Source: Suillus spraguei
Lineage: Eukaryota; Basidiomycota; Agaricomycetes; Boletales; Suillaceae
Direction of reading: 5' to 3'
NCBI GenBank assembly: GCA_016800925.1
Contig: JABCPU010000010.1
Coordinates: 1-64,000 of the forward strand
Length of the DNA stretch: 64,000 nt
The notes beneath the pieces were generated by a model. The model saw nothing but the letters and a program-made list of their open reading frames with translations, was not told where the DNA came from and made no database searches. Numbering within the stretch: position 1 is the first letter of the stretch; every line of letters starts with the position of its first letter. The position numbers and the translations under genes were made by a program. Shown piece by piece: positions 2,300-64,000 of the stretch.

Positions 2300-2802
2300 T
2301 CGGTGATAGGTCCCCACCGACACAGAAGCTCCTCGAAGATGAAGGCACTAAGGGTCCTGGTGTTTTCCTTACGTAGCATATGCCATTCTGGGTAGCCAGT
2401 AAGAGCACAACACACTTGAACTAAGCGATCAAATCTGCCGGCTTTTGGCATCATCATAGTGTCAAGGTGTGCGCGCCTAAAGATACCACTGGGTACAGGG
2501 ATGGTTGGTGGTATGTGCAAGCAGTGGGTCTGCCTGATCTGACACTCATGACAAGTCCTGTTGTGCCATTTGATATCGTCAATAATATATGGCCACCAAA
2601 AACGCAAAAGAAGTCTAGTGCGAGTCGCAAATATTCCCTTATGACCTAAGTCGTCGTGCACTTCCTTCAGGATATGCAAGCGCTTAGCCACTGGTATGAC
2701 TAGCTGATGTTTGCTGAGCAACTGCTGCTGGAAGAGGCTATCCCCTAACACAAAGTACTGAACAAGTGTTCTGACAAAGGATGTGAATTCCTTGTCAGTC
2801 AA
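2300..2802 (-). pseudogene. Ty3/gypsy integrase, N-terminal part
   Basis: The minus-strand frame contains an integrase zinc finger of the HHCC type: HDDLGHKG gives the two His and TCHECQIRQ the two Cys. The start of the catalytic core follows, with HLDTMMMPKAGRFDRL holding the first catalytic Asp. The frame stops at the LTR insertion point after RWGPITDV; the rest of the core is at 818-1335. It follows the RT/RNase H frame after a short break near 2805-2830, so the polyprotein is interrupted here as well. Confidence 0.85.
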
Positions 2803-2832
2803 GCTCGCTGGCCACTTGCAGTCAGTCAGGAA

Positions 2833-4863: not shown

Positions 4864-4868
4864 AGAGG

Positions 4869-5074
4869 TTAGGTAATGATAATGAGCAGATAACTGAGGG
4901 CAGTCAAAGGGAGACGATGATGTGTCAGCAGTAGTGCTCCATAAGAGTGGTGGTCACGCAGTGGGCGCTGGTATGCGGTCAGTGGGACTTGGTACGGTAG
5001 CGGTAACTTTAGCGGTAACTGGTTCTTGAGAAATGAAAGAAGAAGAAGAATGAAATGTTTGGGAGTCTCCCCAC
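4869..5074 (-). mobile_element. Leader of the pol relic
   Basis: This short stretch lies between pol and LTR A2. In the minus direction the LTR end CTTTACA is followed at once by GTGGGGAGACTCCC. The TGGGGAGACTCCC part could be a tRNA primer-binding site, since such sites begin with TGG. No gag frame fits between the LTR and pol, so the relic either lost gag or the two parts come from different copies. Confidence 0.4.
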
Positions 5075-5909
5075 TGTAAAGATACAACCTAACCTGGGCT
5101 GTAGATAAACTACCTCCTAAGTTAGTATGTGAGTCTTAGTCAGCAGTAAGTTGCCGCAGTCAGTGATGATGCCACCAGAACTAGCGTTGTATGTAGCGGT
5201 GCTACCGTGGTTGAGATATAGTCAGTAACAGTTGCGTTGAGCAAGCAATGATATCAGTGGTAGCAGTAATGTTGTGAGCGGTGCAAAGAAACAGTAAAGA
5301 AGGCCACAGTACTTTCAGTGGTAAAGTAGCGGTGCATGAGAAGTTCAGTCAAAATAGCAATCAAAAGTCCAGCAGTATGCCAACGGTAATGGAGAACGAG
5401 CATAATCGATCAATGAGTGATAAGGAACCTTAAAGACTAAGTCTACTACTGGGTTGATCCAGAGCTAGACAATAATCCTGACCTATAGTATGTGCAAAGG
5501 GGTAAAATCATGTATTGTGCAGGGTATGTGGTGCTTATATCCTAAATTGTATGTACTCGGAATGCTCTAGGCGAGATCAGTAGCGCTCAAGTATAGTAAC
5601 TGCCATATGTAAACATAGCACGAGGCGCTGCAGCACGAGGCAACATATAATAAGACTTGCCATGGAATCAGTGATAACGAACATAAAACAAATGATGCAC
5701 CAAATGGCGCTATGCAGATGTGGCAAGGACATGGGAGGACATCGGTATGTGGAACGAGGTGCGGCAGTCGGTATGGTGTGCGGTAAGTGTGGGATGCCAC
5801 CAGTAATGCTAAAGGGGTAAGACAGCCATGGACAAGTGGTAACACCTATAGACATGAGACAAGTGTCAAAAGATAGGGTTTTAAGCCCAGCACCAATATG
5901 TTCGTTACA
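5075..5909 (-). mobile_element. LTR copy A2 (835 bp)
   Basis: It has the same ends as A1 and A3: minus strand TGTAACGAACATATTGG to CTTTACA. It is about 130 bp shorter because of internal gaps. It precedes the pol relic in the pol direction, so it may be its 5' LTR. A GGGGA block occurs on both sides (immediately outside the right end, and two bases outside the left end), so it could instead be an insertion of its own. Confidence 0.75.
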
Positions 5910-5994
5910 TCCCCTAGGAACTTTAAAAACTGACCGTCCCTGGTCAACTATACCGCCGGTAAGGGACTTAGCAAAAATTTGAGTGATATCAAGA

Positions 5995-6002
5995 TCACGT
6001 GA
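5995..6002. promoter_or_regulatory. TCACGTGA palindrome upstream of the zinc-cluster gene
   Basis: A perfect E-box-type palindrome (CACGTG core) lies about 170 bp before the start codon of the zinc-cluster gene. Fungal bHLH factors bind such cores. A role here is inferred from position only. Confidence 0.3.
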
Positions 6003-6173
6003 TGAGACGCGTAAGCGGAATTTGCCATGCGGAAGTGGAATTGTGGACATGCCATGCTGTGACTGTGGACAATGCAGCGGAGTGTGACGCAGTGTGGTCA
6101 CGAAATTACCATTCCCTACAAAAGGGCCATTGTTGGGCTTCGCCACTTTCTCCCATCTTTACTTCATACCACC

Positions 6174-8397
6174 ATGTCTTCATCTACCTTTGCTTTTGAC
6201 ATCTCTGCTCCTGCCACCGCACCATCTGTGGCACAAACAAAACTCACCGCACTCCAAGAGAAATTGGACGGTCTCATCCTCTCTGCACCAGACGACAAGG
6301 AGGAACTCCTGGAGGAGAAGGAGATGTGGGTAAAAGCATGGGAGAAATTCTTCATGCGTCTTCTTTTTCTTCTTTAGTGGTGTAAAGATACAACCTAGCT
6401 TGGGCTGTAGATAAACCACTGCCTAAACTAGTATGTTAGTCTTGCACTCCATCTAGTCTGCTTCACTTGTAAGAACAAGAGCGTTCGACCCTAAAGGGGG
6501 ATGCCTATTCAGTATGGTCAAGTTCGAGCCTAACTTATGTGCAAAACAAGTGTCGTGGTCAGCAGTAAGTTGCCGTGGTCAGTGATGATACCGCCGGAAC
6601 TAGTGTCGTGAGTAGCAGTGCTACCGTCGTCGAGATAAGGTCAGTAACAGTTGCGTTGGGCAAGCGATGTTGAGTGGTGGTCTCAGTGGTAGTGGTAAGG
6701 TTGCGAGCGGTGCAATGAAACAGTAAAGAAGTCCACAGTACTTTCAGCGGTAAAGTAGAGGTTCATGGGAAGTTCAGTCAAAGTAACAGTCGAAAGTCCG
6801 GCGGTATGCCAGTGGTAACGGAGAACAAGCGTGATGTATTAACGAGCGGTAGGAAGCTTTAAAGACTATGTCCACTACTGGGTAGATCCAGAGCTAGACA
6901 ATAATCCTGACCTATAGTACGCGCAATGGGGTAAAATCAGGTACTGTATCATGCGGGGTATGCAGTGCTTATATCCTAAATCGTATGTACTCGGAATACT
7001 CTAGGTGAGATCAGTAGCACTGGAGTGTTGTAACCGCCATAAGTAAACATAGCACGAGGCGCTGCGGCACGAGGCAACATGTAATAATGCTTGCCGTGGA
7101 ATCAGTGATAAGGAACAGAAAACAAACTACGCACCAAATGGAGCTATGCGGACGCAGCAAGGACATGGAAGGACATCGGTTCATGGAATGTGGTGCGGCA
7201 GTCGGTATGGTGTGCAGTAAGAGTGGGATGCTGCCGGTACTGCTAAACGGGGTAAGATGGCCATGGACAAGTGTTATCTCCTGTAGACGTGAGACGAGTG
7301 TCAAAATATGGGGTTTTAAGCCCAGCGCCAATATGTTCGTTACAGTGGTATTGGTACTAACTTAGCTTTTCTCTAGCATGATGTCGAAGAGTGCCGCCAC
7401 GAAGGCGCAGCACTTGGCCTTAGCTTGGGCTTGACGCCTGAGGAGGTCTTAGAGGCCAATGTGGTGATGCCGACCATCAATGCTTATCGCTTGGAGATCG
7501 CTGCAGCTGAAATGGCCGCAGAGGAGAAGAAGAAGGCTGCCACGGCTCCAGTTGAGCCTGCGGTAGCTGACAAGGGTAAGGGGAAGAAGTGGGCTTTGGA
7601 GGAAGAGCCTGAGGAGGAGGAAGTTGCTAAGGGTGACAGTGAGGAGGAGGAGGAGGAGGAGGAAGTGCCTGCGCCCAAGAAGGTAGCACAGCCCTCCTCT
7701 AAGAAATCCTTGGAGGTGCTGATAGCGCAACCGCCAGTGAGTCCTTTATTTCTTTCTTGACTTAGCTTTTACTGATCTTATTTAGCCCAAGACTGCTCAC
7801 ATGCGCGCTGGCAATCTGCGGCACGCCACAAAGTGTGAGACCTGTGCTAAGGGGGACCACATTTGCACCGGTGAGGAGGGCAAGGTCTGCGACCACTGCC
7901 GCAAGTATAAACATAGGTGCTCCCACAACACTGGTGAGTCTTTCTCTCTTTTCTTGACTTAACTCTGTGCTAACTCATTTTCCTTAGTTCATTGCAAAAG
8001 AGCGTGTCCTGCGGCAAAGACACCGCCTGTGGTCACTGCCACCGGCAGCTCCAAGAGTGCCGCCATGGCTAAGTCAAAGAAGCTGGATGAGGTCATAGAA
8101 GTGACTGATGGTGAGCCAGTGGTGGTCGCCTCTCCCTCCTGCCCAGCAAAAATCGCTGCCAAGGTGCAGTCTGTTGCAGTGGTAGAGGAAGACTCTGAGG
8201 AAGAAGCCGTGGATGTAGCGCAGCATCTGCAGGACCTGCAAGGTGAGGAAAATCTGGACTTCCTTATGGCAGTCTAACTGGAGGACGCCCAAGCACACTT
8301 CATGCAGATGGAAGGGATGATGAAGGAATTGGCGGGGAAGATGAACTTTCTCCATGACTGTATGAACCGCCGCCAAAAGAGGCGCCACTTACAGTAG
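6174..8397 (+). pseudogene. Zinc-cluster (C6-spaced) protein gene, split by an LTR and a stop
   Basis: Four exons join in frame. Exon 1 (6174-6357) starts MSSSTFAFDISAPATAPSVA. Exon 2 (7377-7736) is acidic, with runs of Glu and the block GLTPEEVLEANVVMPTINAY. Exon 3 (7786-7933) holds KCETCAKGDHIC and KVCDHCRKYKHRC. Exon 4 starts at 7988. The cysteine spacing is C-x2-C-x6-C-x7-C-x2-C-x6-C, inside the range of the fungal Zn2Cys6 binuclear cluster, but the basic loop lies in the second half instead of the first. Intron 1 runs from 6358 to 7376 and contains the whole LTR A3; without it the intron is about 55 nt with a CTAAC branch-like site. An in-frame TAA at 8275 replaces a probable CAA. The frame stays open after it for 39 more codons, a Met/Lys-rich helix ending in RRQKRRHLQ. 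DNA binding is inferred, and I do not know the family's role. Confidence 0.7.
6381..7344 (-). mobile_element. LTR copy A3 (964 bp) inside intron 1
   Basis: The ends match A1 and the length is equal to it. GTGG stands immediately outside both ends (6377-6380 and 7345-7348), a perfect 4-bp target duplication. It is 5 bp (GTGGT) if the terminal T is counted as target. The insertion lies wholly inside an intron of the zinc-cluster gene and in the opposite orientation to that gene. Confidence 0.88.
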
Positions 8398-9450
8398 TTA
8401 CTTTAGTCTTTCTCTTCTTTTTCCACTGTGCTTGTACCTTAGCTTCTTCATACTTGTACTATAGCATAGTTGCCGCAATGATAGGAGTCCTGGCGGCTCC
8501 AGAAAAAAACAGTGTGAACACCTAAGTCCTTGGGAGGTCCAATAAGTCCAGATGCCTCCATGTCCAAGTCCTAGCACCAGTCATAGTCCATTTGACGCCT
8601 AAGGTAAATGGTAACGTATAGTAAGCGCTCACTTGCGGTAAACACAAATTGAACTGATACTGTGAGTCTATGCAAGGTTCCGCTCGTCTTGTCTTCTTCA
8701 TTGCGCTATCTTCATCTATGCCTGCCGCCAGTAAGCTTCGGCATGATATCTCCTGTCTTATCAATCAATGGGTGTGGTGTGCTGCCTATGAATTCGAAGA
8801 CAAAGGTGTATAGTACTTTAGCAGTGCACGGTATTCCTTGCTCAATTGATATAGTCCTTTGTACCATAATAAGAGTCTGTGCGCTTGTTAGCGCTAAACA
8901 TATGTAAGTGATGCTGTGTGGGCGTGCATTTGAAAGTGTGAAACTTATCGCTGGATGAAACCTGGGGTAAAACAGAGACTATCATACATGTGTGGTATTC
9001 TTTTCTTTGTTTTTATGATCAAGTAATGAGGGTGGTATTAGCGAATGTCAGTGGCGGTAGGGTAATGAATGATGCCATTGGGGTTTCCGCTGGCGGGTAT
9101 ACGTGCTTGGGTCTTTGACGCTTGACTTCTGGGGTTAACTTCTTCATCTGCAATGGAAACTGTGTGATCTGTGTTCGTACTGCTGTAGCGCTATGCAAGC
9201 ATGCGATGGCCTGTGGTACTGTGGGACAATAGTTGGTGGACGACTAGTGGGCAGTAGGCTGCGCTTCATCATCTGCCGCAAGAACGTATGCCGGTAGTCG
9301 ATAATAAATGTTCTAGCCATGGTAAGGCTAGGAATGCAGTATGGCCTGATAAGACCATCGGCTTTGCATACTAACGCAGTGGTCAACACACAGCGGTAGG
9401 CACATGCGGTCTGTAAGTTCAGCTGAATAGCTCCTGTGGTGAACGTTTCT
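8398..9450 (-). mobile_element. Decayed 3' part of gag-bearing element
   Basis: No intact gene is visible. Positions 8865-9060 resemble 290-480, the stretch downstream of the pol relic. A minus-strand frame at 9144-9389 is open for 81 codons, but I cannot assign it. The simplest reading is an element B (gag at 9451-10287) that lost its pol by deletion and kept its 3' end here. Confidence 0.4.
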
Positions 9451-10287
9451 TTAGATGTCAGTGGTAAATGTTGCTTTTGCGGTATGCATCGGTGCTTCTA
9501 CTATACTATGCCTTTCCAGTGATACTTCCATAAATTCTTCACTATCAGTGCTAGAGGTCTGTGGTACTTCATCTTGAGAGTGTGTAGGTTCCGTGACCAT
9601 CAAGAGTTCTGTCAGTAAAATGTCAGTGCTAACCAAGTCAATTGCCGTTTCGTCTGTTTCTTCTAGCGAGCGGTATGTGTCGCTGTCTGTATAAATGGTG
9701 CAAAACACAGTGTCGTCAGTATAGCGTGTTTCATTCAGGGACAAACTTTTGTCGAGCACTTGGACTGGCAGAGATGCCGTATCCTCGCGCGGTAGTGCCA
9801 TAGGTAGCATAGTGCTGTCTATACTTGGTGCCATTAGCAATTGCTGAACTGCCAGTGGTGTGGTATCTTTGGGCGGTAGCGATACTTGTTCAGCGGTAGT
9901 GATTTCCAATGCCATAACTTGTTGCAGTATGTCAGCGTCAGAGTGCTCAATAGCGTTTCCCTGATAGGGGTCTGCCAGTGGAGCGACTGCTTCAGCGGTA
10001 ACTGTGCGGTTGAACGTAATAGGACCACATTCTGGGTACAAGTGCAAGATAGTGTTAGCGAAGTCTACAAAGCTGTTACCATTGTATTCGTCAAGACATT
10101 CCCATACTTCTGCTTCATCAGGGTCTGCATAGCATATAGCCGCCTTGATGCATGCTTTATCAGCGATGCCGGCCAAGTCTGCCAGCTCGTCTACAGTAGC
10201 AAGGAACATTAGCAATTCTCTTGGGTTACCGTTGAAGTACGGTGCCGCTGCTGTGCAGCGCAGTGGCATGCAAAATCTGTCAGACAT
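9451..10287 (-). CDS. Gag-like protein of element B
   Basis: This is a 278-codon minus-strand frame. The N-terminal 90 residues contain APYFNGNPRELLMFLATVDE followed by a helical stretch and VDFANTILHLYPECG, the layout of retrotransposon Gag (FxGxxxxLxxFL at the start, a Trp/Leu-rich middle). The rest is acidic, Thr-rich and of low complexity. There is no CCHC zinc knuckle and no protease motif in frame. It begins about 115 bp inside LTR B, the normal position for gag. Gag would form the particle shell. Without pol in the same element it could only work in trans. Confidence 0.6.
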   Translation of the reverse strand: MSDRFCMPLRCTAAAPYFNGNPRELLMFLATVDELADLAGIADKACIKAAICYADPDEAEVWECLDEYNGNSFVDFANTILHLYPECGPITFNRTVTAEAVAPLADPYQGNAIEHSDADILQQVMALEITTAEQVSLPPKDTTPLAVQQLLMAPSIDSTMLPMALPREDTASLPVQVLDKSLSLNETRYTDDTVFCTIYTDSDTYRSLEETDETAIDLVSTDILLTELLMVTEPTHSQDEVPQTSSTDSEEFMEVSLERHSIVEAPMHTAKATFTTDI

Positions 10288-10379
10288 ACTTATGTATCAG
10301 TAGCGTAGTGGTGCAGTAATAACTGCGGTGACAAGCGTGCGGTAAGCGATTAAGACAAGAACAAAACTATACCAAAGGA

Positions 10380-10401
10380 CCCCCTCGCAGTGGGCTCCAG
10401 T
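10380..10401 (-). other. Probable tRNA primer-binding site of element B
   Basis: On the minus strand the LTR end CTTTACA is followed by two bases and then TGGAGCCCACTGCGAGGG. The TGG start is what a primer-binding site complementary to a tRNA 3' CCA end needs. The tRNA was not identified. Confidence 0.4.
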
Positions 10402-11302
10402 TGTAAAGATACAATCTAGCCTGGGCTGTAGATGAACCACAGCCTAAACTAGTATGTGAGTCTTGCGCTCTACCTAGTCTGCTTCACTTGCGAAAGCAAG
10501 AACATTCAACCCTAAAGGGAATGCTAAGTTAATATAGTTCGATATTGCCCAACCTGTGGTGCGAGAATGCTGTCGGAGGTAGCGAGATGCTAGCAGTGAC
10601 CTCTGGTCCATGGGAAACTTGCTGTAAAACTAGCGGTAAGTGTGGGAATGCGGTAGGCAAGCAGTAGCATGAACAGTAAAACTGCGGTAAGCGTGGGAAC
10701 TTCTGTGGTAAAACAAGCGGTAGTGTAGCGGTGAAGCATGAGAAAGCGGTAGCGCAGGAAAGCAGTAAAGAGTGGTAGTGCATGCAGCAGTGAAGCAATT
10801 CTTAGAGAGACAGTGACTTTGGATGACTTTATTCAGTAGAGACAGTAGTGGTGACTATTCCTAAGTACTGTGTGTACTATAGGAGGGAAGTAAGGAACGA
10901 GTACAGGTACCTAGGAATTTTATACTAAGGAATAGCTACAGAAACGGAAGGGATAGGATTAACACGCAGCAGACATGTAATAAGACTGCACTACAGTTTA
11001 CAAAACATCACGTACCGGCGAGACTGGATGGACATCGGACGGACAGTAAATCTTGCTTGAGGATGCCAAATGGGTTCGCGGAGATTGCCGAAGATCACCA
11101 CTTCATGGGAAAGTTGCCATAGTACAGCCGCTAAGCTGCAACGAGGCTTCCGGAGTGTGGAACGATACCGTTAGATAGGGGTAATGCATGGTAAAGTGTC
11201 ATGGCAAGGGACGGTGAAGCCAAAAGGTAAGGATAATGATAGCCATGTGACACCTATATGAAAATGTGCCATGTCAAGCTCAGCGTGAGTTTGTTCGTCA
11301 CA
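10402..11302 (-). mobile_element. LTR copy B (901 bp), 5' LTR of the gag element
   Basis: It has LTR ends TGTGACGAACAAAC and CTTTACA on the minus strand and shares only the terminal portions with the A copies, so it forms a second subfamily. It lies directly upstream of the gag frame in the same direction. The interior is filled with gcggta and its transition variants. Confidence 0.8.
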
Positions 11303-12070
11303 GTGGTAATGTAGTGGTGCGTTGTTAAGACTGTACTCAAAGGGTGAAAGATCCAAAGGGCTTTGGCCTCAGTTCATGCACTGTGCCCCTTTCCCAAGTA
11401 ATGCCCCTTATTTCAGAGGGTAGGTATACGTCCGAAGATCCGGAAGGAGTTGCGTGACGGATCAGGACATCCGAAGGTATCAGATATGATACGTCTGAAG
11501 GTTATTCAGAGCGTAGAGATGGAACAAGGATTAAGGCTAGCTTCAGAACGAGTTCCTAACTAGAAACTAACAGAGGTAGACTATCCAAAGATAGAGTCGG
11601 AGATATAGACTAAAGGAATCAATTCCAAGTCTTGGAAGATGACTAGAGTGGAAAGTGAATCAAGTCCGGAGGAAACAGAATGAGCAGAATCTAAGATGAT
11701 AGTTGAACTAAGGTTCTACGGAGATCTACAAGTGGTTTATATACTGTAAGTAACTAGCACAGATAATCAAGGAGTCCAGGACTGAGGGCTATGTACAAAG
11801 TATAATGGAAGTCTATTAGTTAATGCACAGCGGATCAGTAAGCACGAGTTGGAAATAAAACACAGGTAACGGATCAATAAGCAGGACAGAAGTATACACA
11901 GCCGGAATACCGGAAACAGGAGGGATGCTGAAAGGAGATAGATGCAGATATACACAGGGGAGTTAGAGTGCAAGAATTGGGCACTGTTGGATGGGTGATC
12001 CAGACAGGATCTGTGGATCGGACGGAAGTAAGGTTGATCGGATCTGAGATTGGAAATATGGTATATGACA
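11303..12070. other. Unassigned AG-rich stretch between LTR relics
   Basis: There is no convincing gene. The sequence is rich in short purine blocks (tccgaag, gatccgg, agtccgg) and resembles LTR interior sequence, but I found no matching partner or clear termini. Open frames here are short and unrecognisable. Confidence 0.4.
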
Positions 12071-12654
12071 TGCATGAGAAGTTCAGTCAAAATAGGAATC
12101 AAGAGTCCAGCAGTATGCCAGCGGTAACGGTGAACAAGCGTAATCGATTAACGAGCGGTAAGGAAACTTTAAAGACCAAGTCTACTACTGGGTAGATCCA
12201 GAGCTAGACAATAATCCTGACCTATAGTACATGTAATGGGGTACAAATCAGGTATCGTATCATGCGGGGTATGCAGTGCTTATATCCTAAATTGTATGTA
12301 CTTGGAATGCTCTAGGCGAGATCAGTAGCACTCAAGTATAGTAACCGCCATATGTAAACATAGCGCAAGGTGCTGCAGCATGAGGCAACATGTAATAAGA
12401 CTTGCTGTGGAATCAGTGATAACGAACATAAAACAAACAACACACCAAATGGAGCTATGCGGACGCAGCAAGGACATGGAAGGACATCGGTATGTGGAAC
12501 GTGGTGCAGCAATTGGTATGGTGTGCAGTAAGCATGGGATGCCACCGGAAGTGCTAAAGGGGTAAGACAGCCATGGACAAGTGGTAACTCCTATAGACAT
12601 GAGACGAGTGTCAAAAGGTAGGGTTTTAAGGCCAGTGCCAATATGTTCGTTACG
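12071..12654 (-). mobile_element. Truncated LTR copy C of the A subfamily
   Basis: From tgcatgagaagttcagtcaa onward it follows copy A2 (from about 5335) down to the terminus atatgttcgttac. The other end is missing, cut near 12071. It has the same minus orientation as A1-A3. Confidence 0.75.
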
Positions 12655-12699
12655 GCGGAATGGCCCACCTATGGTTCATATACCGCTGGGATAGCCTGG

Positions 12700-13613
12700 T
12701 GTAGCGAACAAAGTCACGCTGACCATGAAAGTGCCGTTTTACACAAGCGTCTCGTTACTGTCTGCAGTGGCTACTGAGAAATCCCCTATAGCGAGCATTA
12801 GTTTTTTTGCTTCGCCAGTACTGTTTTTGCTCCGTGGATCCTTGCCCCTTACTGAATCTTGCTACTGATGTCCTCCTGTCCATTCCATTTCTGTCTAGAT
12901 CCATTGGTGCATAGCATATTTGTTTCCGCCGTTACTAAAGCTACAGCAAGACTTACATTACCTTCCATGACACCGCTTGCTCGCTGCATGCCTCTTTACT
13001 AAAATCATGTAGTACATCTTTATTTCGCTACCATTCTTGCTATGTATTCTGGCCACTCATGGTACATGTTAAAAAGGACTCTTCGCACATACTGGTACTT
13101 TTACTTTTCCCTCTATGGTACACACGGTACTTAGGAATTGTCACCACTACTGTCTCTAACGGAATGAAGTCTTTCGCCAAAGTTACTGTCTCTTAAGAAT
13201 TGTTTTACTGCTGCATGCACCACCGCTCTTTACCGCTTTCCTGCACTTCACCACTTGCACTACACTTTCCCGCACTTTATTGCTATGCTTCACTGCTTGT
13301 TTTGACGCCAGTTTCCCATGCCTTACCGCAGTTTTACCGCTCGCACTACCGCTACTTTACCACTATCTTCCCGTGCTCTACCACTACTTTACTGCAGCTT
13401 TCCCACAGAGCGGAGCTCACCGCTAGCATCTCACTACCTCCGATGGCAGTCTTGCACCACAGGTTGGGCATTATTGAACTATATTAACTTAGCATTCCCT
13501 TTAGGGTTGAACGCTCTTGCTTTGCAAGTGAAGCAGACTAGACAGAGCACAAGACTTGCATACTAGCTTAGGCCGTGGTTCATCTACAGCCCAGGCTAGA
13601 TTGTATCTTTACA
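12700..13613 (+). mobile_element. LTR copy B-prime (914 bp), opposite orientation
   Basis: On the plus strand it begins TGTAGCGAACAAAGTCACG and ends ATTGTATCTTTACA, so it is the reverse of copy B. The interior shows the matching complement (accgc, taccgct blocks). No target duplication is seen: CCTGG stands on the left and CCAGT on the right. It may have been involved in a rearrangement. Confidence 0.75.
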
Positions 13614-13835
13614 CCAGTCCAAATCATCTTGTTTGTTTCTATTTATTTCCCACATTCTATAAAATTATGTACTGCCTTTTCTTCTTTCTTTCTCCTACAT
13701 TTTATTGTGCACCATCCTCTCTCAATATTAGTCCTGCAATGTTCTCTCTCATTTCTTTACTACTTCACTGGGTTGCTTATCTGGGTGGGTACTTCCTGCT
13801 AAGCTCTCTTTTCTATTTAATCTTTAACATTTCTA

Positions 13836-35030: not shown

Positions 35031-35162
35031 TGCCAGGAGTCTGGGGTCTTTTGATTGTGGATGATGTGAGGATGTTCGGATTTTGTTTGCTCAGCGTTTG
35101 AAATTGAAGTTATTCGAAGAAGCCAAGAAAGTTCCGAATGATAGCACTGTTGCAAGCGTACC

Positions 35163-36941
35163 ATGAGCCTGAAAGCCGCAGTCGTTTGGGTTTCCCTTGC
35201 CTTTGAATGGGTTTTGACTGCACAAATACCTCTGTCGAGTCATGCGCCTTTTCCTTCTACACGGGGGTCGAAAATGATAGTGGACAATGGGATCTTGGTC
35301 AAGCGCCTGAGATAAAAGCGACAGGACATCTGGTGTTCGCAACGGCCAATAACCTGATTCAACACTGGGCAAATACACGTTATCGTATTGGTGGGTCTGA
35401 AATACTGAACACCGTGCATGTCATGACTCATCGCTTACACCCTGCAGGTCATACAATAGTCCCAGGGACTATTCCCGTAGGCACTCTCCTCTACCATGGA
35501 TCCATCACCGGTCCTCATTTACCGATTGTTCTGGATTGGGTATCTGTGGAACCAGACCACTCCATGATTTTCTGCCATGGGTCGATCGAAACAGGGTGCT
35601 GGCACCTCACCCTTGAAGTCACTCGACCAATGAAAGTGCTCTACTTTGACGGAAGCAGCGCTGTGAGAATCCCTGAGGGCACCATGGACACCAAGATCTT
35701 GTGGCATGGTCGGAAATGAAACCCGAGTGGATGGAAAATGAGGAGCAGCGCATTACAGATCTGTGTAAATGGGGTCAGAAATATGGCTTGAATGGCTTTG
35801 TGAGGTTCGTTAGATATTGAGATGTGTCAATACCTGATATTGATTTGTGAGTTATAGAATGCAAATAAATTTGTACGAACCCATTCGTAGCTCTTTAGTG
35901 ATATGTCACTAACAATGGTCACAGTGAAGTCATGATCTGCAACTTCACCTCTCACATGGAGGTCGTTTCGTTCTTGAATCTCGAGAGCCCTCGCTTCGTG
36001 ACCGGCCCGCCTATCGATTGGCCAGAGAACCCTACTTCGGGTGAGCGATCGTGTCCATGTTTTGACATAGGTCTGATTTATTCTTATATCAAATGTTCGA
36101 AATGCAACATTCTGCTTCATGGCGTGAGATTTATCCAGGAGAAACTCGGATTATGCTTGATTTTTCTGGCCTCGTCTCTTTCTATGACACCGCTCTTGTT
36201 CCCTCCTTGGTGTCGCGCCGTGTAGGCTTGGAGCGGTGGAATCACCGAGTTAGAGGAATCTCACGGGAGGATATAGAACGTGTCCAAGAAAGGCTAGATC
36301 AAGTGTTGATACGACCACCTATGACAACCAGCGGCATTGACTGGAAGACCCTCTTGAGGGTGGTGGTAGATCGATATGCCAGCCGCCTAGAGATGAGCAG
36401 TTTTTGAACATGACGTTAGACGATAAGTCGATCTTTAACCATGCACGACAAGTCCAGAGACGGCTGCGCACCGTGCTTTTGCCCTACACTTTGTTTGCAG
36501 TTATACCTCCCAATACCTCTATCACTGCCAACACGACAAATTCATGGGCCGTGCCAGTTTTTCGGGAATGTGCTACATGCACATGCCCCTTTTATCCTCC
36601 GGAAGAACGGCTTAAAGCTGATCACATACATACTCTCATGGGCGAATGGAAGGAAGATATGACACAGTCAATCTCCTGGTTAGACTGGAGCGTGTGGGTG
36701 AAGTGCCGACCGGCCTGTAGAATTGAGGTAACAAAGTCAAGTCATTTGTTTGGGAAATGACTGATCTCGTCGTGTGTAGGAGATGTGCTACTTGTCTACT
36801 TGGCCCCTTGGGTTTCCCAGCAATGCTCCGCTACTTCAAACTCGATGGGACGGTGTTTCCTTATGGCCAGACCCAAACAATGGGGAATGGAAGAGACCAA
36901 AGCCAAAGTGTATCAGGCGGCTGGAGCCGTATGGTTTTTAG
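35163..36941 (+). pseudogene. Secreted-protein gene, broken paralogue C
   Basis: It is collinear with the intact gene at 41768-43689 in all five exons and introns. One base is missing in exon 1 (gcgccttttccttc against gcgcctttatccttc) and one in exon 2 (gacaccaag against gacactcaag). Exon 4 has lost bases near 36395 and about 130 bp near 36575, where gctacatgcacatgcc joins directly to ccttttatcc. The last exon and its stop are present. The flank after it up to about 37120 also matches, including the region where the HSF start codon lies in the other copy; here that ATG reads GTG. It is a dead copy. Confidence 0.85.
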
Positions 36942-37120
36942 GTTGCATTGTTACTTACACTTGCACGTAGCGTAGTCGTAGTCCTTGTAAAATTATTGCA
37001 GTACATTTTGAAAGAAGGTTTTGATTTGAATGTTTTGATGTGTTGGGTGGCCGGCTGAGATTGTCAAAAGCAAAGTCACTCTTGTCTCTTTCATCGACTA
37101 CAATGTGGGTACAGACCATG

Positions 37121-41767: not shown

Positions 41768-43689
41768 ATGAACCCGAAAGCTGCAGTCGTTTGGCTTTTC
41801 CTTGCCTTTGAACGAGTTCTGACCACACAAATACCTCTGTCGAGTCATGCGCCTTTATCCTTCTACATGGGAGTCGAAAATGATCTTGGTCAAGCACCTG
41901 CTGTAAATGCGACAGGACATCTGGTTTTCGCAACGGCCAATAACCTGCTTCAACACTGGGCAAACACACGTTATCGTATTGGTACATCTGAAATAAAGAC
42001 TGAACACTGTGCATGTCACGATTCATCGCTTACATCCTGCAGGTCATACAATAGTCTCAGGGACTATTCCCGTAGGCACTCTCCTCTACCATGGATCCAT
42101 CACCGGTCCCCATATACCAACTGCTCTGGATTGGGTGTCTGTGGAACCAGACCACTCCATGATTTTCTGCCATGGGTCAATTGAAACAGGGTGCTGGCAC
42201 CTCACCCTTACAGTCACTCGACCAATGAAAGTGCTCTATTTTGACGGAAGCAGCGCTGTGAAAATCCCTGAAGGCACCATGGACACTCAAGATCTTGTGG
42301 CGTGGTCGGAAATGAAACCCGAATGGACGGAAAATGAAGAGCAGCGCATTATAGATCTGTGTAAATGGGGTCAGAAATATGGCTTGAATGGCTTTGTGAG
42401 GTTCGTTGGATTTTGGGATATGTCAATACCTGATATCGATTTGTGAATCATAGGATGGAAATAAATTTGTGCGAACAGATACGCAACTCCTTGGTGATGT
42501 GATTTGTTACTAACAACGGTCCCAGTGAAATTATGATCTGCGACTTCACCTCTCACATGGAGGTTGTCTCGTTCTTAAATCTTGAAAACACTCGATTCAA
42601 GCACAGCCCGCCTACGGATCTGCCAGAGGACCCCACTACTGGTGAGTGACCATATTCATGTTTTGAAATACGTCTGATTTGTTCTTGGACATCAGAGTAT
42701 CAAATTTTTGAATTAATGCATTGTGCTTCATTGCGCGAGATTTATCCAGGAGAAACCCGGATTATACTTGATTTTTCTGGGCTTATCTCTTTCTACGACA
42801 CCACTCTTGTTCCCTCCTTGGTGCCGCATCGTACAGGCCTGGAGCGGTGGGACCATCGAATTAGTGGAATATCATCAGAGGATATAGAGCGTGTCCAAGA
42901 AAGGCTAGATCAAGTGTTGATACAACCATCCGTGACAACCAGCAGTATTGACTGGAAGACCGTCTTGCGGGTGGTGGTAGACCGATATGCCAGCCGCCTA
43001 GAGATGATGCAGTACCTTTTGAACATGACGTTAGACGATAGGTCGATCTTTAACCATGCGCGACAAGTCCAAAGACGACTGCGCACCGTGCTTTTGCCCT
43101 ACACTTTGTTTGCAGTTATACCTCCCAATACCTCTATCACTGCCAACACGACAAATTCATGGGCCGTGCCAGTTTTTCGGGAATGTGCTACATCGCACAC
43201 GGCCTCGATAGAAGCTCATGAAACGACACTGACGCCTTCTGAATATTTGCTACTGCAGGCGGTACGGGAAACTACGCGTGAAATATGCCGCGTCACTACG
43301 AAGATGTGGGCTTCTGGGTTGATTGTTGGAGTTGACCCCTTTTATCCTCCGGAAGGACGCCCTGAAGCTGATCACATACATACTCTCATGGGCGAATGGA
43401 AGGAGGATATGACACAGTTAATCTCCTGGTTAGACTGGAGCGTGTGGGTGAAGTGCCAACCGGCTTGTGGAATCGAGGTAACCAAGTTGGGTCACTTGTT
43501 TGGGAAATGACTGATCTCGTCGTGTAGGAGATGTGCTACTTGCCTACTTGGCCCCTTGGGTTTCCCAGCAATGCTCCGCTACTTCAAACTCGATGGGACG
43601 GTGCTTCCTTATGGCCAGACCCAAACAACGGGGAATGGAAGAGACCGCAGCCAAAGTGTATCAGACGGCTGGAACCGTATGATTTTTAG
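41768..43689 (+). CDS. Secreted protein of unknown function, intact paralogue B
   Basis: Five exons (41768-41981, 42043-42400, 42526-42641, 42696-43477, 43528-43689) join in frame from ATG to TAG. The N-terminus is KAAVVWLFLAFERVLTTQI, a probable signal peptide. Conserved blocks are GHLVFATANNLLQHWANTRY, GTLLYHGSITG, EPDHSMIFCHGSIETGCWHL and MKVLYFDGSSA in the first half. A long helical part with TNSWAVPVFRECA follows, and the end is CQPACGIE, MCYLPTWPLGFPS and PKCIRRLEPYDF. The paired Cys (xGCW, CxPAC, MCY, KC) suggest disulfides. The stop lies 180 bp before the HSF start, so the HSF promoter is confined to that interval or runs into this gene. The enzymatic activity or partner is unknown. 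Confidence 0.85.
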
Positions 43690-43871
43690 AATGCATTATT
43701 ACTTACACTTGAAGTTGTAGTTGTACGTAGTCGATCGTAGTCCTTGTAAAATTATTGCAGTACAGTTTAAGCGCGCGTGACGTATGCGAAGTTTAATGTT
43801 TTGACGTGTTGGCTTTTGTGGCCGAGATTGTCAAAAGCAAAGTCACTCTTGTCTCTTTCATCGACTGCAAT

Positions 43872-46176
43872 ATGAGTACAGACCAACAAATGTATCTGGC
43901 GGTAGCTCCCAGAGCTAGCTCGTCGCATCTGAACAGGCCAGCACGTCAGCTCGTCCCTGCCTTTCTTCAAAAACTATATGAGTGCGTATTTAGTTAAATC
44001 TAATCTCACAGATGCTGTAGTCCTGACATCCTACAACCATCTTGCTCCTATAGGATGGTTAACGACCCCTCAGACCACGATCTCATTCGATGGTCTGACA
44101 CCGGTGACTCTTTCTTTGGTATGTCCAACGACAGTCTTTCTCTATTCAATATTCAACGAGTTTGGCACACTCATAGTCCTCGACCAAGAGCGCTTCGCGA
44201 GTGAAGTCCTAGGACGCTGGTTTAAACACAAGAACTTCTCCTCATTTGTCCGCCAACTTAATATGTATGGCTTTCACAAAATTCCTCATCTCCAACAAGG
44301 CGTACTTCGTTCAGATTCAGATACCGAATTCTGGAACTTCGAGCACCCCCATTTCCTCCGTGGCCAACCAGATATGCTCTGCCTTATCCAGCGCAAGAAG
44401 CAGGCCGCAGCTACTTCCGACGTTGCTACTGCTATCGCTGAAGTTCCTAATAAAGATGTGGGTACAGCTGCGTCTGCAGGTGCCCTGACCCCTGGCCAAT
44501 TGATGGACATGAATTCAATCGTGAATGGTATTCAAGCCATCAAAAGACATCAAGCTGCCATCTCTGCTGACCTCAATGACCTCAAGTCCTCCAACCAGCA
44601 TCTTTGGCAGGAAGCTATCGCTGCTCGTGAGAGGCATAAGAAGCACCAGGACACCATTAACCGTATCCTCAAATTCCTTGCTGGAGTGTTCGGTCATGCA
44701 GATAATCCAATACGCAAGGATGATATAGGTGGAGGTGGGGTTGTTAGTGGTGGTGAGGGGAGTGAGATCGTTGCGAGATTGCCACAGCGGTTGATGATTG
44801 GCGATGGGCGCAGTGGCGGAGGGAGTGGTGCAAAGAAGGGTGTTGACGTTACTGAGATCATAGATGACCAACCGAAGACCAGTATAGACAGTGCAAACTC
44901 TTCTGAAATGGGTACGTTCTGCATTTGCATCTGTGTTTCGACATTGACGCCCTGCCTACATGATTTTGCAGATTTTTTCGCGTCTCTGGACACACCTTCC
45001 GCTATCCCATCTGAGCAGGGCCCTTCGTGCAATACTTCGCCCCGATTTGCGTCCATTGAACCCTCTCTTCCTGATACCCCGACTCCCTCAACAGATGCAA
45101 GTACCGCATCATGCCCCAACACCGTCCCCATCAACACCACTACAACCAACACTATCAATCCAAACCCATTGAATATAAATGGCGCCTCGCCCACCTCGCC
45201 TAATACCTCTTTCCCTCGTCCTGCCGCAATTCAACATTCAGTTTCTGCACCTGCCTTCACCTCCCTAACCACTGCACCCCCTCAGCCTTCTCCACAGAAT
45301 GACGCCCTCATCCATGCCGCACTGTCCCAGGTGCTCTCGTCTCCTGTGCAGATGCAGAAACTGATAGCCGCTCTTGGTGGGGGTGGATTCTCGTTGTCAG
45401 GAGATGGACACACGCAAGGAATAATACCACAGTCCATAATGCAGCAGCCTTTCCCCACCCAACCGCAACCGCAGCCACAGCCGCAACCCCAGTTGCCCCA
45501 ACAGCACACAAACGCCAACCCAACGCAACTGATGCCATACGACCCTCCCACGTTTCAGACGGACTACCCTAGCTCATACTCCCTCCTCTCGCAGAGCGGC
45601 GGCGTTGAGGTATCGCCTTTCGAAGCACACGACGATCACCTGCAGAAGACCTACTCTACAGCACACGAGATCAACACAGATGTTGACTCGCTGGAAACGA
45701 ACATCCATTCCCTCATTCAGAGCCTCGGCTTTGACCCGTCGACTTTCGACGCTACTGATGGCGCTCAGCCGCATCTCGATGATCCCTATGGAGTAGGCTC
45801 GGGGCAGGATTCTTTCGACATTGGCTCCTATCTTAACGGTATGGATCTGGCGCATGATGCAGCTGGGCATACGGGCCAGGGTGAGGAAGACCCAGATATG
45901 GAGAGCCTGAGGCTGGCAGACAAGCTGGACTCGTCAACGGCGCGTGGAGCAGGCGTGGACAAAAAAGTACCAAGTGAAGAGGTGCATGCATTCCTTGATG
46001 GGGTTGCTTCTCAGGATGGCGGCGTGGACATGGCTACGTCTTTGATGCAAACAACCCAAAGTGCGAACGCCACGCGACCCCGCAAACGCAAATCAGACGT
46101 AACGGATGCTGGTTCGCTTTCAGGTCCGACAGAATCGACATCAACAACAGGTAGTAGGACTAAGAGGAAAAGATGA
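43872..46176 (+). CDS. Heat-shock transcription factor
   Basis: Exons are 43872-43981, 44054-44118, 44177-44911 and 44972-46176. Residues about 25-140 form the HSF DNA-binding domain: VPAFLQKLYEMVNDPSDHDL, IRWSDTGDSFFVLDQERFAS, EVLGRWFKHKNFSSFVRQLN and MYGFHKIPH. The recognition helix is SFVRQLNMYGF. A 60-residue hydrophobic-repeat coiled coil follows (NGIQAIKRHQAAISADLNDL to LKFLAGVF), the place of the HR-A/B trimerisation region. The rest is Gln/Pro/Ser-rich with a PQPQPQPQPQLPQQ run. The end is basic (RPRKRKSDV, TKRKR), a likely nuclear signal. HSF trimers bind nGAAn repeats and drive chaperone genes. Spacing to the upstream secreted gene is 180 bp. The arrestin gene ends 260 bp downstream on the other strand, so the two converge. 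Confidence 0.92.
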
Positions 46177-59375: not shown

Positions 59376-59951
59376 AAGCCACACTCATCATCCTGGATCG
59401 CCTAAATTGTTCTCGACGACTATGGAAGAACAAGCGCGCAATCTACAATGAGATTGAACCGGGCTATCATTATCACCGGGAGAAATCTCACCCCTATTTG
59501 GCCTTCGTTTGCATGCGTGTTTGTATGTATTTGTTGTACGAAACTCCAAGAAAATACTATTGAATATAAATGCGTACAGAAGTCACATGTTTCCTACCTT
59601 GTTGGAAAACGTTGAACGTTGGACGGGTGGCCGAATGTATTAAATTCTAAAACTAACGGCTTCCGGCCGTAAGAAAAAGAAAGTACTAGTGAATGAACGA
59701 GTTGCCATCGACTCTAAGGGACCCGACTTGTTAATGTCGAGATCCTACAATTCGTGATTAATATTGTTCCTTTCGTCTGACCACCTCAGGCTAACGCCTG
59801 TGAAATCTGACAGGGTGTCAAGTAGCACTGGCGACAGCGCATCGAGCACATCCACACGCGCCTCCTTATCTATGAATCCAACCGGTTTTACAACAGGAGC
59901 CTCGTGTGACCAGTGCTGGGAGCTTGTCCCAAAAGAAAGGTGCTGCTGTTT
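59376..59951. repeat. Direct repeat R, copy 1
   Basis: It matches 63390-64000 in the same orientation, from cacactcatcatcctggatc to gaaaggtgctgctgttt, with small insertions or deletions in either copy. The copy-2 match runs to the window edge, so the true right limit of R is unknown. Shared blocks include ggcttccggccgtaagaaaaag and ctgaccacctcaggctaacg. Confidence 0.85.
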
Positions 59952-60392
59952 CATTTTACTTCCTTTGTAGGCCGTGAGTCCGTCCGACTTCCATATCAAA
60001 ATCTGCCAGCAATTGGGATAATCAATATTACTGAAATTCGAAGGTGATATTGAATTCAGACTCGTGACTAGCAGATTCTGGTTTGAATGGATGGATGAGT
60101 CTGGGCAAATCTGGGCCAGAAAATAATATGGGACTGTCGACTCTGATCTATAACGACCCAGTGACCCCAGTGGAAAATGTAGAAGATCTCTTTGAGAAAT
60201 CGGAGCTAGAAGCAACAGCGGCAAGTCATTTATCCGAACTGAAGATCCGAATGGTGTTCTACCAATTATAATAGTGCACTCGACTTGCAGGTTTCTTCGT
60301 TGAACTCTATGTATCATGACGTGCAGTGTGGATCTACACGTGCGCCAAGGCGAATAAGATAGCTGAGAGTCCCCTTTAATGCCGAGTGCCAC
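59745..60392 (-). CDS. Open frame in repeat R and its flank, unknown
   Basis: This is a 215-codon minus-strand frame. Its last 68 codons lie in repeat R, where the second copy (63770-64000) has a one-base insertion in gttgggattc and a 7-base insertion near 63855, so it does not keep the frame. Blocks like HEAPVVKPVGFIDKEARVDV are present, but I recognise no family. It may be a real gene in this copy or a chance frame. Confidence 0.25.
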   Translation of the reverse strand: MALGIKGDSQLSYSPWRTCRSTLHVMIHRVQRRNLQVECTIIIGRTPFGSSVRINDLPLLLLAPISQRDLLHFPLGSLGRYRSESTVPYYFLAQICPDSSIHSNQNLLVTSLNSISPSNFSNIDYPNCWQILIWKSDGLTAYKGSKMKQQHLSFGTSSQHWSHEAPVVKPVGFIDKEARVDVLDALSPVLLDTLSDFTGVSLRWSDERNNINHEL

Positions 60393-61163
60393 CTACATAG
60401 TACCATGCTTGAGCTTCTGAGTCCAACACTGTCTTCGATACTCCAGCATTTGTGCGCTTGGGGCCCAGAGTATGGGACGGTATTAGACACGCTGACCTTG
60501 ACCCAAAATCATATCTTCAGAGTGGCGCCGTGCCATTGGAATAGTCATAGGAGCAAATTTCCTAATTTAGAATCGCCCCTATCAAACTCAGTACCTGACA
60601 TACTGGCTGTTCATGCTATGGCACATCTTATCAGGGATCCTAAACAAATAAACCGTCGGAATGCATACGAACTAATTAATGAACTACAACATCTTCATCG
60701 TAGAGCAAGATGAGTATGTCTTTGCCAACTCGGGGTCTCTCCGACTACTTCTACTAACCCTGCCAGTTTCATTCAACGCGTTCTGGGGCTTAACGCACCT
60801 TCATGTGCGTCCACATTGTTGTAATCAAATCAAAATTTCAAGGGCAAGTTTACAGCATCAAGCCAATGCCAGTTTTCGTTATCGATGGTATGACATATAC
60901 GATTTCAAAATTATTAATATTGTGTTTCAGAGGAGGGTTACGTCCTCTCAATATGAAAATAAGTATCTTTACAGTGCTATTGCAATCGGACCGAGCATTA
61001 TTCATTCCCAATAAACCTTTACAAATAACTGCCAACCTGAGTCAACACTGCATCGTGAAACATTATGGCACAGGAACTTACTCTTTAGAGAGCACATTAT
61101 CCGTACGAGGCTTCTTACATATTTCCAATCTTACTCTTCCACGTGTGCGCTTTCTCGAATCCG
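60393..61163. other. No gene recognised
   Basis: A plus frame at 60405-60713 (102 codons) and others overlap without clear features. No repeat is visible except possible extension of repeat R. Confidence 0.4.
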
Positions 61164-61821
61164 TTACGACCGGTTCGAATTCATGTCCATCAATTGGCCA
61201 GGGGTCAGGGCACCTGCAGACGCAGCTGTACCCACATCTTTATTAGGAACTTCAGCGATAGCAGTAGCAACGTCGGAGGTAGCTGCGGCCTGATTCTTGC
61301 GCTGGATAAAGCAGAGCATATCCGGTTGGCCACGGAGGAAATGGAGGTGCTTGAAGTTCCAGAATTCGGTTCCTGAAACTGAACGAAGTACGCCTTGTTG
61401 GAGATGAGGAATTTTGTGAAAGCCATACATATTGAGTTGGCGGACAAATGAGGAGAAGTTCTTGTGTTTAAACCAGCGTCCTAGGACTTCACTTGCGAAG
61501 CGCTCTTGGTCGAGGACTATGAGTGTGCCAAACTCGTTGAATATTGAATAGAGAAAGACTGTCCTTGGGACATACCAAAGAAAGAGTCACCGGTGTCAGA
61601 CCATCGAATGAGATCGTGGTCTGAGGGGTCATTAACCATCCTATAGAGCAAGATGGTTGTAGGATGTCAGGACTACAGCATCTGTGAGATTAGATTTAAC
61701 TAAATACGCACTCATATAGTTTTTGAAGAAAGGCAGGGACGAGCTGACATGCTGGCCTGTTCAGATGTGACGAGCTAGCCCTGGGAGCTACCGCCAGATA
61801 CATTTGTTGGTCTGTACTCAT
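61164..61821 (-). CDS. HSF DNA-binding-domain-only paralogue
   Basis: This copies the first three exons of the HSF gene (61712-61821, 61576-61640, 61164-61516). The first two exons have exactly the lengths of the parent (110 and 65 nt), and the GT and AG ends of both introns are kept. The frame runs open through the whole DNA-binding domain (PACQLVPAFLQKLYE, IRWSDTGDSFFV, SFVRQLNMYGFHKIPH) with a few changes such as VSGTEFWNFKHLHFL. It ends after MDMNSNRS at a new TAA created where the duplication joins unrelated sequence. So it would encode about 175 residues with no trimerisation or activation part. Expression is unknown; the upstream promoter stretch was copied too. A competing DNA binder is possible but is inference. 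Confidence 0.75.
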
Positions 61822-63386
61822 ATTGAAGTCGATGAAAGAGACAAGAGTGACTTTGCTTTTGACAATCTCGACCACAAAAGCCAACACGTCAAAACATTAA
61901 ACTTCGCATACGTCACGCGCGCTTAAATTGTACTGCAATAATTTTACAATACAACTTCAGGTGTAAGTAATAATGGATCCTAAAAATCATACGGTTCCAG
62001 CCGTCTGATACACTTTGGCTGCGGTCTCTTCCATTCCCCGTTGTTTGGGTCTGGCCATAAGGAAGCACCGTCCCATCGAGTTTGAAGTAGCGTAGCATTG
62101 CTGGGAAACCCAAGGGGCCAAGTAGGCAAGTAGCACATCTCCTACACGACGAGATCAGTTATTTCCCAAACAAGTGACCCAACTTGGTTACCTCGATTCC
62201 ACAAGCCGGTTGGCACTTCACCCACACGCTCCAGTCTAACCAGGAGATTAACTGTGTCATATCCTCCTCCATTCGCCCATGAGAGTATGTATGTGATCAG
62301 CTTCAGGGCGTCCTTCCGGAAGATAAAAGGGGTCGACTCCAGTAATCAACCCAGAAGCCCACATCTTCGTAGTGACGCGGCATATTTCACGCGTAGTTTC
62401 CCGTACCGCCTGCAGTAGCAAATGTTCAGAAGGCGTCAGTGTCGTTTCATGAGCTTCTATCGATGTCGTGTGCGATGTAGCACATTCCCGAAAAACTGGC
62501 ACGGCCCATGAATTTGTCGTGTTGGCAGTGATAGAGGTATTGGGAGGTATAACTGCAAACAAAGTGTAGGGCAAAAGCACGGTGCGCAGTCGTCTTTGGA
62601 CTTGTCGCGCATGGTTAAAGATCGATCTATCGTCTAACGTCATGTTCAAAAGGTACTGCATCATCTCTAGGCGGCTGGCATATCGGTCTACCACCACCCG
62701 CAAGACGGTCTTCCAGTCAATAATGCTGGTTGTCACGGATGGTTGTACCAACACTTGATCTAGCCTTTCTTGGACACGTTCTATATCCTCTGATGATATT
62801 CCACTAATTCGATGATCCCACCGCTCCAGGCCTGTACGATGCGGCACCAAGGAGGGAACAAGAGTGGTGTCGTAGAAAGAGACAAGCCCAGAAAAATCAA
62901 GTATAATCCGGGTTTCTCCTGGATAAATCTCGCGCAATGAAGCACAATGCATTAATTCAAAAATTTGATACTCTGATGTCCAAGAACAAATCAGACGTAT
63001 TTCAAAACATGAATATGGTCACTCACCAGTAGTGGGGTCCTCTGGCAGATCCGTAGGCGGGCTGTGCTTGAAGCGAGTGTTTTCAAGATTTAAGAACGAG
63101 ACAACCTCCATGTGAGAGGTGAAGTCGCAGATCATTATTTCACTGGGACCGTTGTTAGTAACAAATCACATCACCAAGGAGTTGCGTATCTGTTCGCACA
63201 AATTTATTTCCATCCTATAATTCACAAATCGATATCAGGTATTGACATATCCCAAAATCCAACGAACCTCAGAAAGCCATTCAAGCCATATTTCTGACCC
63301 AATTTACACAGATCTATAATGCGCTGCTCTTCATTTTCCTTCCACTCGGGTTTCATTGCCGACCACGCCACAAGATCTTGGGTGTC
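61168..63386 (-). repeat. Inverted duplication of the secreted-gene/HSF block
   Basis: On the minus strand this follows 42286-44516 almost base for base. One end lies in exon 2 of the secreted gene (at gacac(t/c)caagatcttg); the other is in HSF exon 3 right after atggacatgaattc. Both ends fall inside coding sequence. The length is close to 2.2 kb in both copies. The copies differ by a few percent, mostly single bases. Confidence 0.92.
61980..63386 (-). pseudogene. Secreted-protein gene, 5'-truncated paralogue E
   Basis: Exons 3 to 5 and the 3' part of exon 2 of the secreted-protein gene are present in reverse. The frame breaks near 62270 because one A is missing (GAATGGAGGAGG against GAATGGAAGGAGG), giving the early end GEWRRI. 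The start, signal peptide and first exon are absent. It is part of the inverted duplication at 61168-63386 and cannot make a complete protein. Confidence 0.88.
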
Positions 63387-63389
63387 AGT

Positions 63390-64000
63390 CACACTCATCA
63401 TCCGAACCTGGATCGCCTAAATGTTCTCGACGACTGTGGGTATCACCTAAGAACAAGCGCGCAATCTACAATGAGATTGAACCGGGCTATCATTATCACC
63501 GGGAGAAATCTCACCCCTATTTTGCCTTCGTTTAAATATCAGTTGCGCAATGCGTATTTGTCTGTGTTTTTTGTACGAAACTCGAGTTAATGAAAATACT
63601 GATGAATATTAATGCGTACAGAAGTCACATGTTTCCTACCTTGTTGGAAACGTTGAACGTTGAACGGGTGGCCGAATGTATTAAATTCTAAAACTAACGG
63701 CTTCCGGCCGTAAGAAAAAGAAAGTACTAGTGAATGAACGAGTTGCCATCGACTCTAATGGACCCGAATTGTTAATGTCGAGATCCTACAATTCTCATTG
63801 ATACTGTTCCTTTCGTCTGACCACCTCAGGCTAACGCCTGTGAAATCTGACAGATTCCAAGGGTGTCAAGTAGCACTGGCGACAGCGCATCGAGGACATC
63901 CACACGCGCCTCCTTATCTATGAATCCCAACCGGTTTTACAACAGGAGCCTCGTGTGACCAGTGCTGGGAGCTTGTCCCAAAAGAAAGGTGCTGCTGTTT
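63390..64000. repeat. Direct repeat R, copy 2 (runs off the window)
   Basis: It matches copy 1 at 59376-59951 in the same orientation and begins four bases after the end of the inverted duplication. Copy 2 has an added gggtatcacct near 63440, cagttgcgcaatgc-type changes near 63540 and an added cttggaatc-type block (plus strand gattccaag) near 63855. Confidence 0.85.

What the first reader, a model, noticed from the sequence alone, without database searches (positions are those of the whole stretch)
61164..61821. New HSF-like gene that encodes only the DNA-binding domain
An inverted duplication copied the HSF promoter and the first exons. Both introns kept their splice sites and the frame is open from ATG to a stop made at the junction (61164-61166). 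The product would have the full winged-helix domain of HSF but no coiled coil and no activation region. Such a protein could compete for heat-shock elements with the full HSF at 43872-46176, or act alone. That it remains free of stops and splice damage, while the linked secreted-gene copy (61980-63386) has a frameshift, is unusual for a passive copy, although it may simply be young.
Basis: partly seen in the sequence, partly recalled or inferred. Interest (0 to 1): 0.8.

Follow-up and report, generated by a model that had tools for sequence, protein, structure and literature searches.

The report
Truncated copy of heat-shock factor gene
In the mushroom Suillus spraguei, the front part of the heat-shock master-regulator gene was copied in reverse to a nearby spot, making an intact-looking small gene for the DNA-binding part alone, but its sequence is changing like an unneeded copy rather than a maintained gene.

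Summary
Bases 61177-63386 (minus strand) are a 96.7% identical inverted copy of 42282-44516 and carry the HSF promoter region, exons 1-2 and part of exon 3. Both introns keep their splice sites, and a TAA at 61166-61164 from the new flank closes a 175-residue frame. The genome is Suillus spraguei; the identical protein is already deposited as BDR07DRAFT_1324811.

New here: the flank that supplies the stop belongs to a local repeat that elsewhere lies just behind a pirin-type gene. The HSF fragment probably replaced a pirin copy and took over its 3' flank.

'Unusual for a passive copy' is not supported: random substitution leaves the frame open in 51-71% of simulations. All seven amino-acid changes are on the copy's branch; 9 of 9 other named Suillus orthologs keep the parental residues, and 7 of 9 have exactly the parental domain. 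Six of seven changes cluster in the wing and just behind it (scan P 0.003, window chosen post hoc).

Best reading: a young lineage-specific partial (chimeric) duplicate, probably not maintained by selection. A DBD-only competitor, or a DBD with an altered wing, is not excluded. No transcript data were available.

The parts
61164..61821 (-). DBD-only HSF gene: exon 1 61821-61712, exon 2 61640-61576, exon 3 61516-61164, TAA at 61166-61164; 175 aa
   Evidence: identical to deposited protein P0001; PF00447 complete
61641..61711 (-). intron 1 of the copy (GT..AG), one base shorter than in the source
61517..61575 (-). intron 2 of the copy (GT..AG), one base longer than in the source
61822..61979 (-). 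copied upstream (promoter) region of HSF; carries a 24-base deletion relative to the source (source 43720-43743)
61177..63386 (-). whole inverted copy of 42282-44516
61980..63386 (-). 5'-truncated, frameshifted copy of the gene upstream of HSF
43872..46176 (+). source: full-length HSF gene, 704 aa, introns 43982-44053, 44119-44176, 44912-44971
   Evidence: 79-93% identical to nine named Suillus orthologs over 99-100% of its length
59377..61176 (.). flanking repeat unit A1; its right end supplies the new stop codon and 3' flank. Homologous units: A2 starts at 63387 (to 65266 in the contig), A3 at contig 72504-74178. In A2 and A3 a Pirin_C-type last exon follows
63387..64000 (.). start of repeat unit A2, abutting the other end of the HSF copy

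Best explanation
A young, DNA-mediated, inverted partial duplication in the Suillus spraguei lineage. A 2.2 kb block (3' part of the neighbouring gene, HSF promoter region, HSF exons 1-2 and part of exon 3) was copied about 17 kb away into a local repeat array. There it was joined in sense to the 3' flank of a pirin-type gene copy, which supplies the TAA and probably the 3' end of the transcript. The result is a formally complete gene for the HSF winged-helix domain alone. It has left the parent's constraint and is most likely a dispensable, drifting copy on its way to becoming a pseudogene. Shown: the structure, the junctions, and that the amino-acid changes are on the copy. Inferred: replacement of a pirin copy, use of its terminator, absence of a maintained function.
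For: Structure and splice sites. Retained introns and promoter region exclude a retrocopy. Flank homologous to A2 and A3, where the last pirin exon's stop lies nine bases beyond the junction-equivalent base. Source and copy share I145, while 8 of 9 other Suillus orthologs have V and one is gapped there, so the copying probably followed the split from S. decipiens. Seven amino-acid changes, all on the copy; 9 of 9 named Suillus orthologs keep the parental residue at all seven sites, and 7 of 9 equal the source at every residue 28-134. The 7-to-0 split has two-sided P 0.016. C25, V105 and L116 were not seen among 181, 238 and 239 aligned homolog residues, and K114 once in 239. An open frame is expected by chance.
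Against: By synonymous sites alone the copy has fewer amino-acid changes than neutral (7 against 13.1 expected, P 0.051). The recognition helix and codons 26-104 carry no amino-acid change. The amino-acid changes are clustered (scan P 0.003), which plain drift does not predict. No exon indel and no splice damage is seen. The AlphaFold2 model keeps the winged helix.
Confidence: 0.72

Rival explanations
1. The copy is a functional DBD-only competitor: expressed from the copied promoter, it binds single nGAAn sites and damps full-length HSF at heat-shock elements.
For: Complete PF00447 domain; winged-helix model matches DNA-bound HSF1 and HSF2 DBDs; copied upstream region; recognition helix unchanged. 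Precedent of short HSFs that repress in Arabidopsis (abstract and passages of PMC12582567).
Against: No constraint detectable on the copy. No coiled coil; trimerisation is reported to raise HSE affinity strongly (passage of PMC8379338). A 24-base promoter-region deletion. No transcript data.
Confidence: 0.12
2. The copy has been remodelled in the wing: loss of acidic residues (D105V, D107G, E114K) together with P116L changes the protein-contact surface, so it acts differently from an HSF DBD.
For: Six of seven amino-acid changes lie in codons 105-133 (scan P 0.0028). Eight of 15 exon substitutions lie in 86 bases (P 0.031 in exons, 0.04 over the whole copied block). DBD net charge shifts from -1 to +2. 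The wing is reported to mediate contacts between DBDs (passages of PMC8379338).
Against: Window width was taken from the data, so the P values are optimistic. Numbers are tiny, and a local mutation cluster or conversion of the remainder by the source would look the same.
Confidence: 0.08
3. The copy acts as RNA: an inverted homologous segment 17 kb from HSF makes sense or antisense transcripts that silence HSF.
For: Inverted orientation and 97% identity over the first exons.
Against: The copy's own promoter would make sense RNA only; no small-RNA data; not examined further.
Confidence: 0.04
4. Assembly artefact (collapsed or misjoined haplotypes).
For: None found; only one assembly was available.
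Against: Both junctions lie inside a 448 kb contig; the copy differs by 46 substitutions in 2209 sites with copy-specific amino-acid changes; the whole assembly holds only these two matches.
Confidence: 0.04

Closest known systems
Partial and chimeric gene duplicates from small DNA-mediated segmental duplications
   Same: Incomplete copy of an ORF that recruits novel flanking sequence for its end, with introns kept, in inverted orientation nearby; described as a class in passages of PMC4546093
   Different: Here the truncation falls just after a transcription-factor DNA-binding domain and leaves it whole
Plant short HSFs (S-HsfA2, S-HsfA4c, S-HsfB1)
   Same: HSF products without coiled coil or activation region; repressive roles reported (abstract and passages of PMC12582567)
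   Different: Those arise by intron retention from the same gene and have a truncated DBD without the wing; this is a separate locus with the whole DBD including the wing
Second HSF of Suillus occidentalis (P0002, EDD22DRAFT_740035, 278 aa, 'partial')
   Same: A second HSF1-like sequence in a Suillus species, diverging from its own full-length gene P0128

Membership tests
HSF-type DNA-binding domain (PF00447) | whole-domain match above the curated cut-off | tested here: met
   121.9 bits against a cut-off of 22, profile 1-100 of 100; fold match to HSF2 DBD 5d8k, E 2.4e-12
Heat-shock factor (full HSF1-type) | coiled-coil trimerisation region behind the DBD | tested here: not met
   frame ends at residue 175; coil columns empty in the copy, present in 114 of 119 aligned homologs; the 5 without are records named 'partial'
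Heat-shock factor (full HSF1-type) | activation region | tested here: not met
   no sequence beyond the coil-side junction; source has 704 aa
Partial/chimeric DNA-mediated duplicate | introns and flanking non-coding DNA copied; novel sequence recruited at the end | tested here: met
Functional short HSF (repressor/competitor) | expressed; alters HSF target expression | not testable with these tools
   no RNA or phenotype data
Maintained gene | purifying selection on the copy | tested here: inconclusive
   7 changes on the copy against 3.65, 4.25 or 13.1 expected neutrally, by yardstick; no DNA outgroup to polarise the synonymous changes

The most novel reading that the evidence does not exclude
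A gene-sized, wing-altered HSF DNA-binding domain arose in one step: promoter, start and domain from HSF, stop and 3' end from a pirin gene's flank. The unchanged recognition helix with a rebuilt, less acidic wing then lets it occupy single nGAAn sites without joining HSF trimers, giving a lineage-specific brake on the heat-shock response.
Probability: 0.07. Interest if true: 0.65.

Novelty: new member of a known kind. Interest (0 to 1): 0.3.

Why it matters
If expressed, it would be a datable case of a transcription-factor repressor born in one rearrangement, with its parent 17 kb away for comparison. More probably it is a clean example of how partial duplication makes gene models that look intact (and are deposited as proteins) without being maintained, and a warning against reading an open frame at 3% divergence as function.

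Tried and rejected
Retrocopy: rejected, introns and upstream DNA are copied. Dispersed transposon carrying the fragment: not supported; the flanking unit was found only three times, all on the same contig (the search skips very common words, so counts are lower bounds). Heat-shock elements in the copied upstream region: six spaced GAA/TTC patterns gave no match in source or copy, so self-regulation is not suggested. Literature: no paper on a DBD-only fungal HSF was seen in three searches, whose listings (1, 4 and 1 papers) were off the topic; the library lacks most subscription papers. DNA of other Suillus species was not available, so synonymous changes could not be polarised. The full-length S. 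spraguei HSF was not listed under its own name (120 of 881 shown, database clustered at 90%).

Full report
WHAT IS THERE. The finding is accurate in its description. A 2.2 kb block, 42282-44516, recurs in inverted orientation at 63386-61177 with 96.7% identity over 2236 columns; without gaps there are 46 substitutions in 2209 sites. The block holds the 3' part of a neighbouring gene, the region upstream of HSF, HSF exons 1 and 2 and the first part of exon 3. In the copy the frame runs from ATG at 61821 through two GT..AG introns (61711-61641, 61575-61517) to TAA at 61166-61164, 175 residues. Residues 1-172 follow HSF, and the short end comes from the new flank. The source is a full HSF of 704 residues. 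Two matches exist in the whole 86.2 Mb assembly. Four further places with the HSF domain lie on other contigs.

WHOSE IT IS. A protein search returned a 100% identical deposited protein of 175 aa, BDR07DRAFT_1324811 of Suillus spraguei, on a contig of 447925 bases, the length of this contig. So the gene model is already public as a hypothetical protein; whether RNA supported that model is not known. Of the 120 listed relatives (of 262 found, length filter about 96-306 aa), 114 of the 119 others carry the coiled-coil region; the 5 without it are records named 'partial'. Within that list the S. spraguei protein is the only one not marked partial that stops behind the DNA-binding domain.

HOW IT AROSE. 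Introns and upstream DNA are copied, so it came by DNA. The copy's HSF end abuts unit A1 (59377-61176). That unit recurs as A2 (63387-65266), which starts exactly at the other end of the insert, and partly as A3 (72504-74178). In A2 and A3 the sequence continues past the junction point into the end of a pirin-type gene on the minus strand. Its last exon matches Pirin_C (36.6 bits, cut-off 27), and its stop codon lies at 65279-65277, nine bases beyond the junction-equivalent base 65267. A1 has no pirin exon there, because HSF takes its place in the same orientation. The HSF fragment therefore probably replaced a pirin copy and uses the pirin 3' flank (inference). Unit distances (K80) are A1-A2 0.044, A1-A3 0.037 and A2-A3 0.030, against 0.019 for the non-HSF part of the block. 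The array is thus probably older than the insert, unless rates differ. Source and copy share I145, where 8 of 9 other Suillus orthologs have V and one is gapped. This suggests copying after the split from S. decipiens, or later gene conversion.

IS IT KEPT. Exons carry 15 substitutions and no gap. Introns carry 1 substitution and 2 gaps, and the upstream part 30 substitutions and 2 gap events. With 8 to 16 random substitutions in the source frame, 71% to 51% of simulated copies keep ATG and have no stop. All four gap events miss the exons with probability 0.35 if placed at random. An open frame is thus no sign of selection. The truncated, frameshifted neighbour copy is no contrast, because it had lost its 5' end at birth. 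Seven codons differ in amino acid: R25C, D105V, D107G, E114K, P116L, L128F, K133N. At all seven, 9 of 9 named Suillus orthologs have the source residue; 7 of these 9 equal the source throughout residues 28-134. So all seven changes are on the copy and none on the source (two-sided P 0.016).

Per branch, the number of amino-acid changes expected without selection is 3.65 by introns plus upstream, 4.25 by all neutral sites, and 13.1 by synonymous sites alone. The copy has 7 (P of 7 or more is 0.078 and 0.138; P of 7 or fewer by synonymous sites is 0.051). The yardsticks disagree because synonymous divergence (0.066) exceeds that of introns plus upstream (0.018). Pairwise dN/dS is 0.276, but half of that tree is the constrained parent. 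In two alignments of 119 and 120 homologs, C25 was seen 0 times of 181, V105 0 of 238, L116 0 of 239 and K114 1 of 239. G107 (6 of 239), F128 (15 of 239) and N133 (13 of 238) do occur. P116 itself is only 69-73% conserved.

AN ODD POINT. Six of the seven amino-acid changes lie in codons 105-133, the end of the wing and what follows (scan P 0.0028). Eight of 15 exon substitutions lie in 86 bases (P 0.031 within exons, 0.04 over the whole block). By codon, amino-acid to silent changes are 1:5 before codon 105 and 6:1 from 105 to 133 (Fisher P 0.029). Boundaries were taken from the data. The domain's net charge moves from -1 to +2. Chance, a local mutation cluster, conversion of the remainder, or selection on the wing could each give this; the first two seem the simplest.

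WHAT IT COULD DO. The AlphaFold2 model (mean pLDDT 73.6; residues 31-90 and 111-130 above 90 on average, wing lower) keeps the winged helix and matches HSF DBD structures, best 5d8k at E 2.4e-12. Residues 138-167 are mostly under pLDDT 50. In passages seen of PMC8379338, one DBD contacts one nGAAn, trimerisation raises affinity, and the wing makes protein contacts rather than DNA contacts. A lone DBD would need high levels to compete. Plant short HSFs show that HSF products without coil can repress (abstract and passages of PMC12582567), but they lack the wing and come from splicing. Nothing tested here shows expression.

VERDICT. An ordinary kind of event, a partial (chimeric) duplicate, with a neat outcome: a formally complete gene for one domain. 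It is already deposited, probably young, probably not maintained. Interest 0.3.

Noticed in passing
window 35121-37118: An older tandem copy (about 87%; K80 0.13 to the source) of the same neighbouring gene and HSF upstream region. It ends in about HSF codon 5 and has GTG in place of the HSF ATG, so the HSF 5' side was copied at least twice.
   Followed up: partly
contig C2 59377-74178 (L003, L004): Local array of pirin 3'-flank repeat units (A1, A2, A3), with Pirin_C-type last exons in A2 and A3. Whether either pirin gene is intact was not established.
   Followed up: partly
P0002, Suillus occidentalis EDD22DRAFT_740035: A second HSF1-like sequence in S. occidentalis (278 aa, 'partial') with L86F in the recognition-helix region and a gap behind the DBD; possibly another decaying partial HSF copy in the genus.
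   Followed up: no
window 1333-13616: Several 0.1-1 kb direct and inverted repeats at 80-92% identity, another local duplication cluster in the same window.
   Followed up: no
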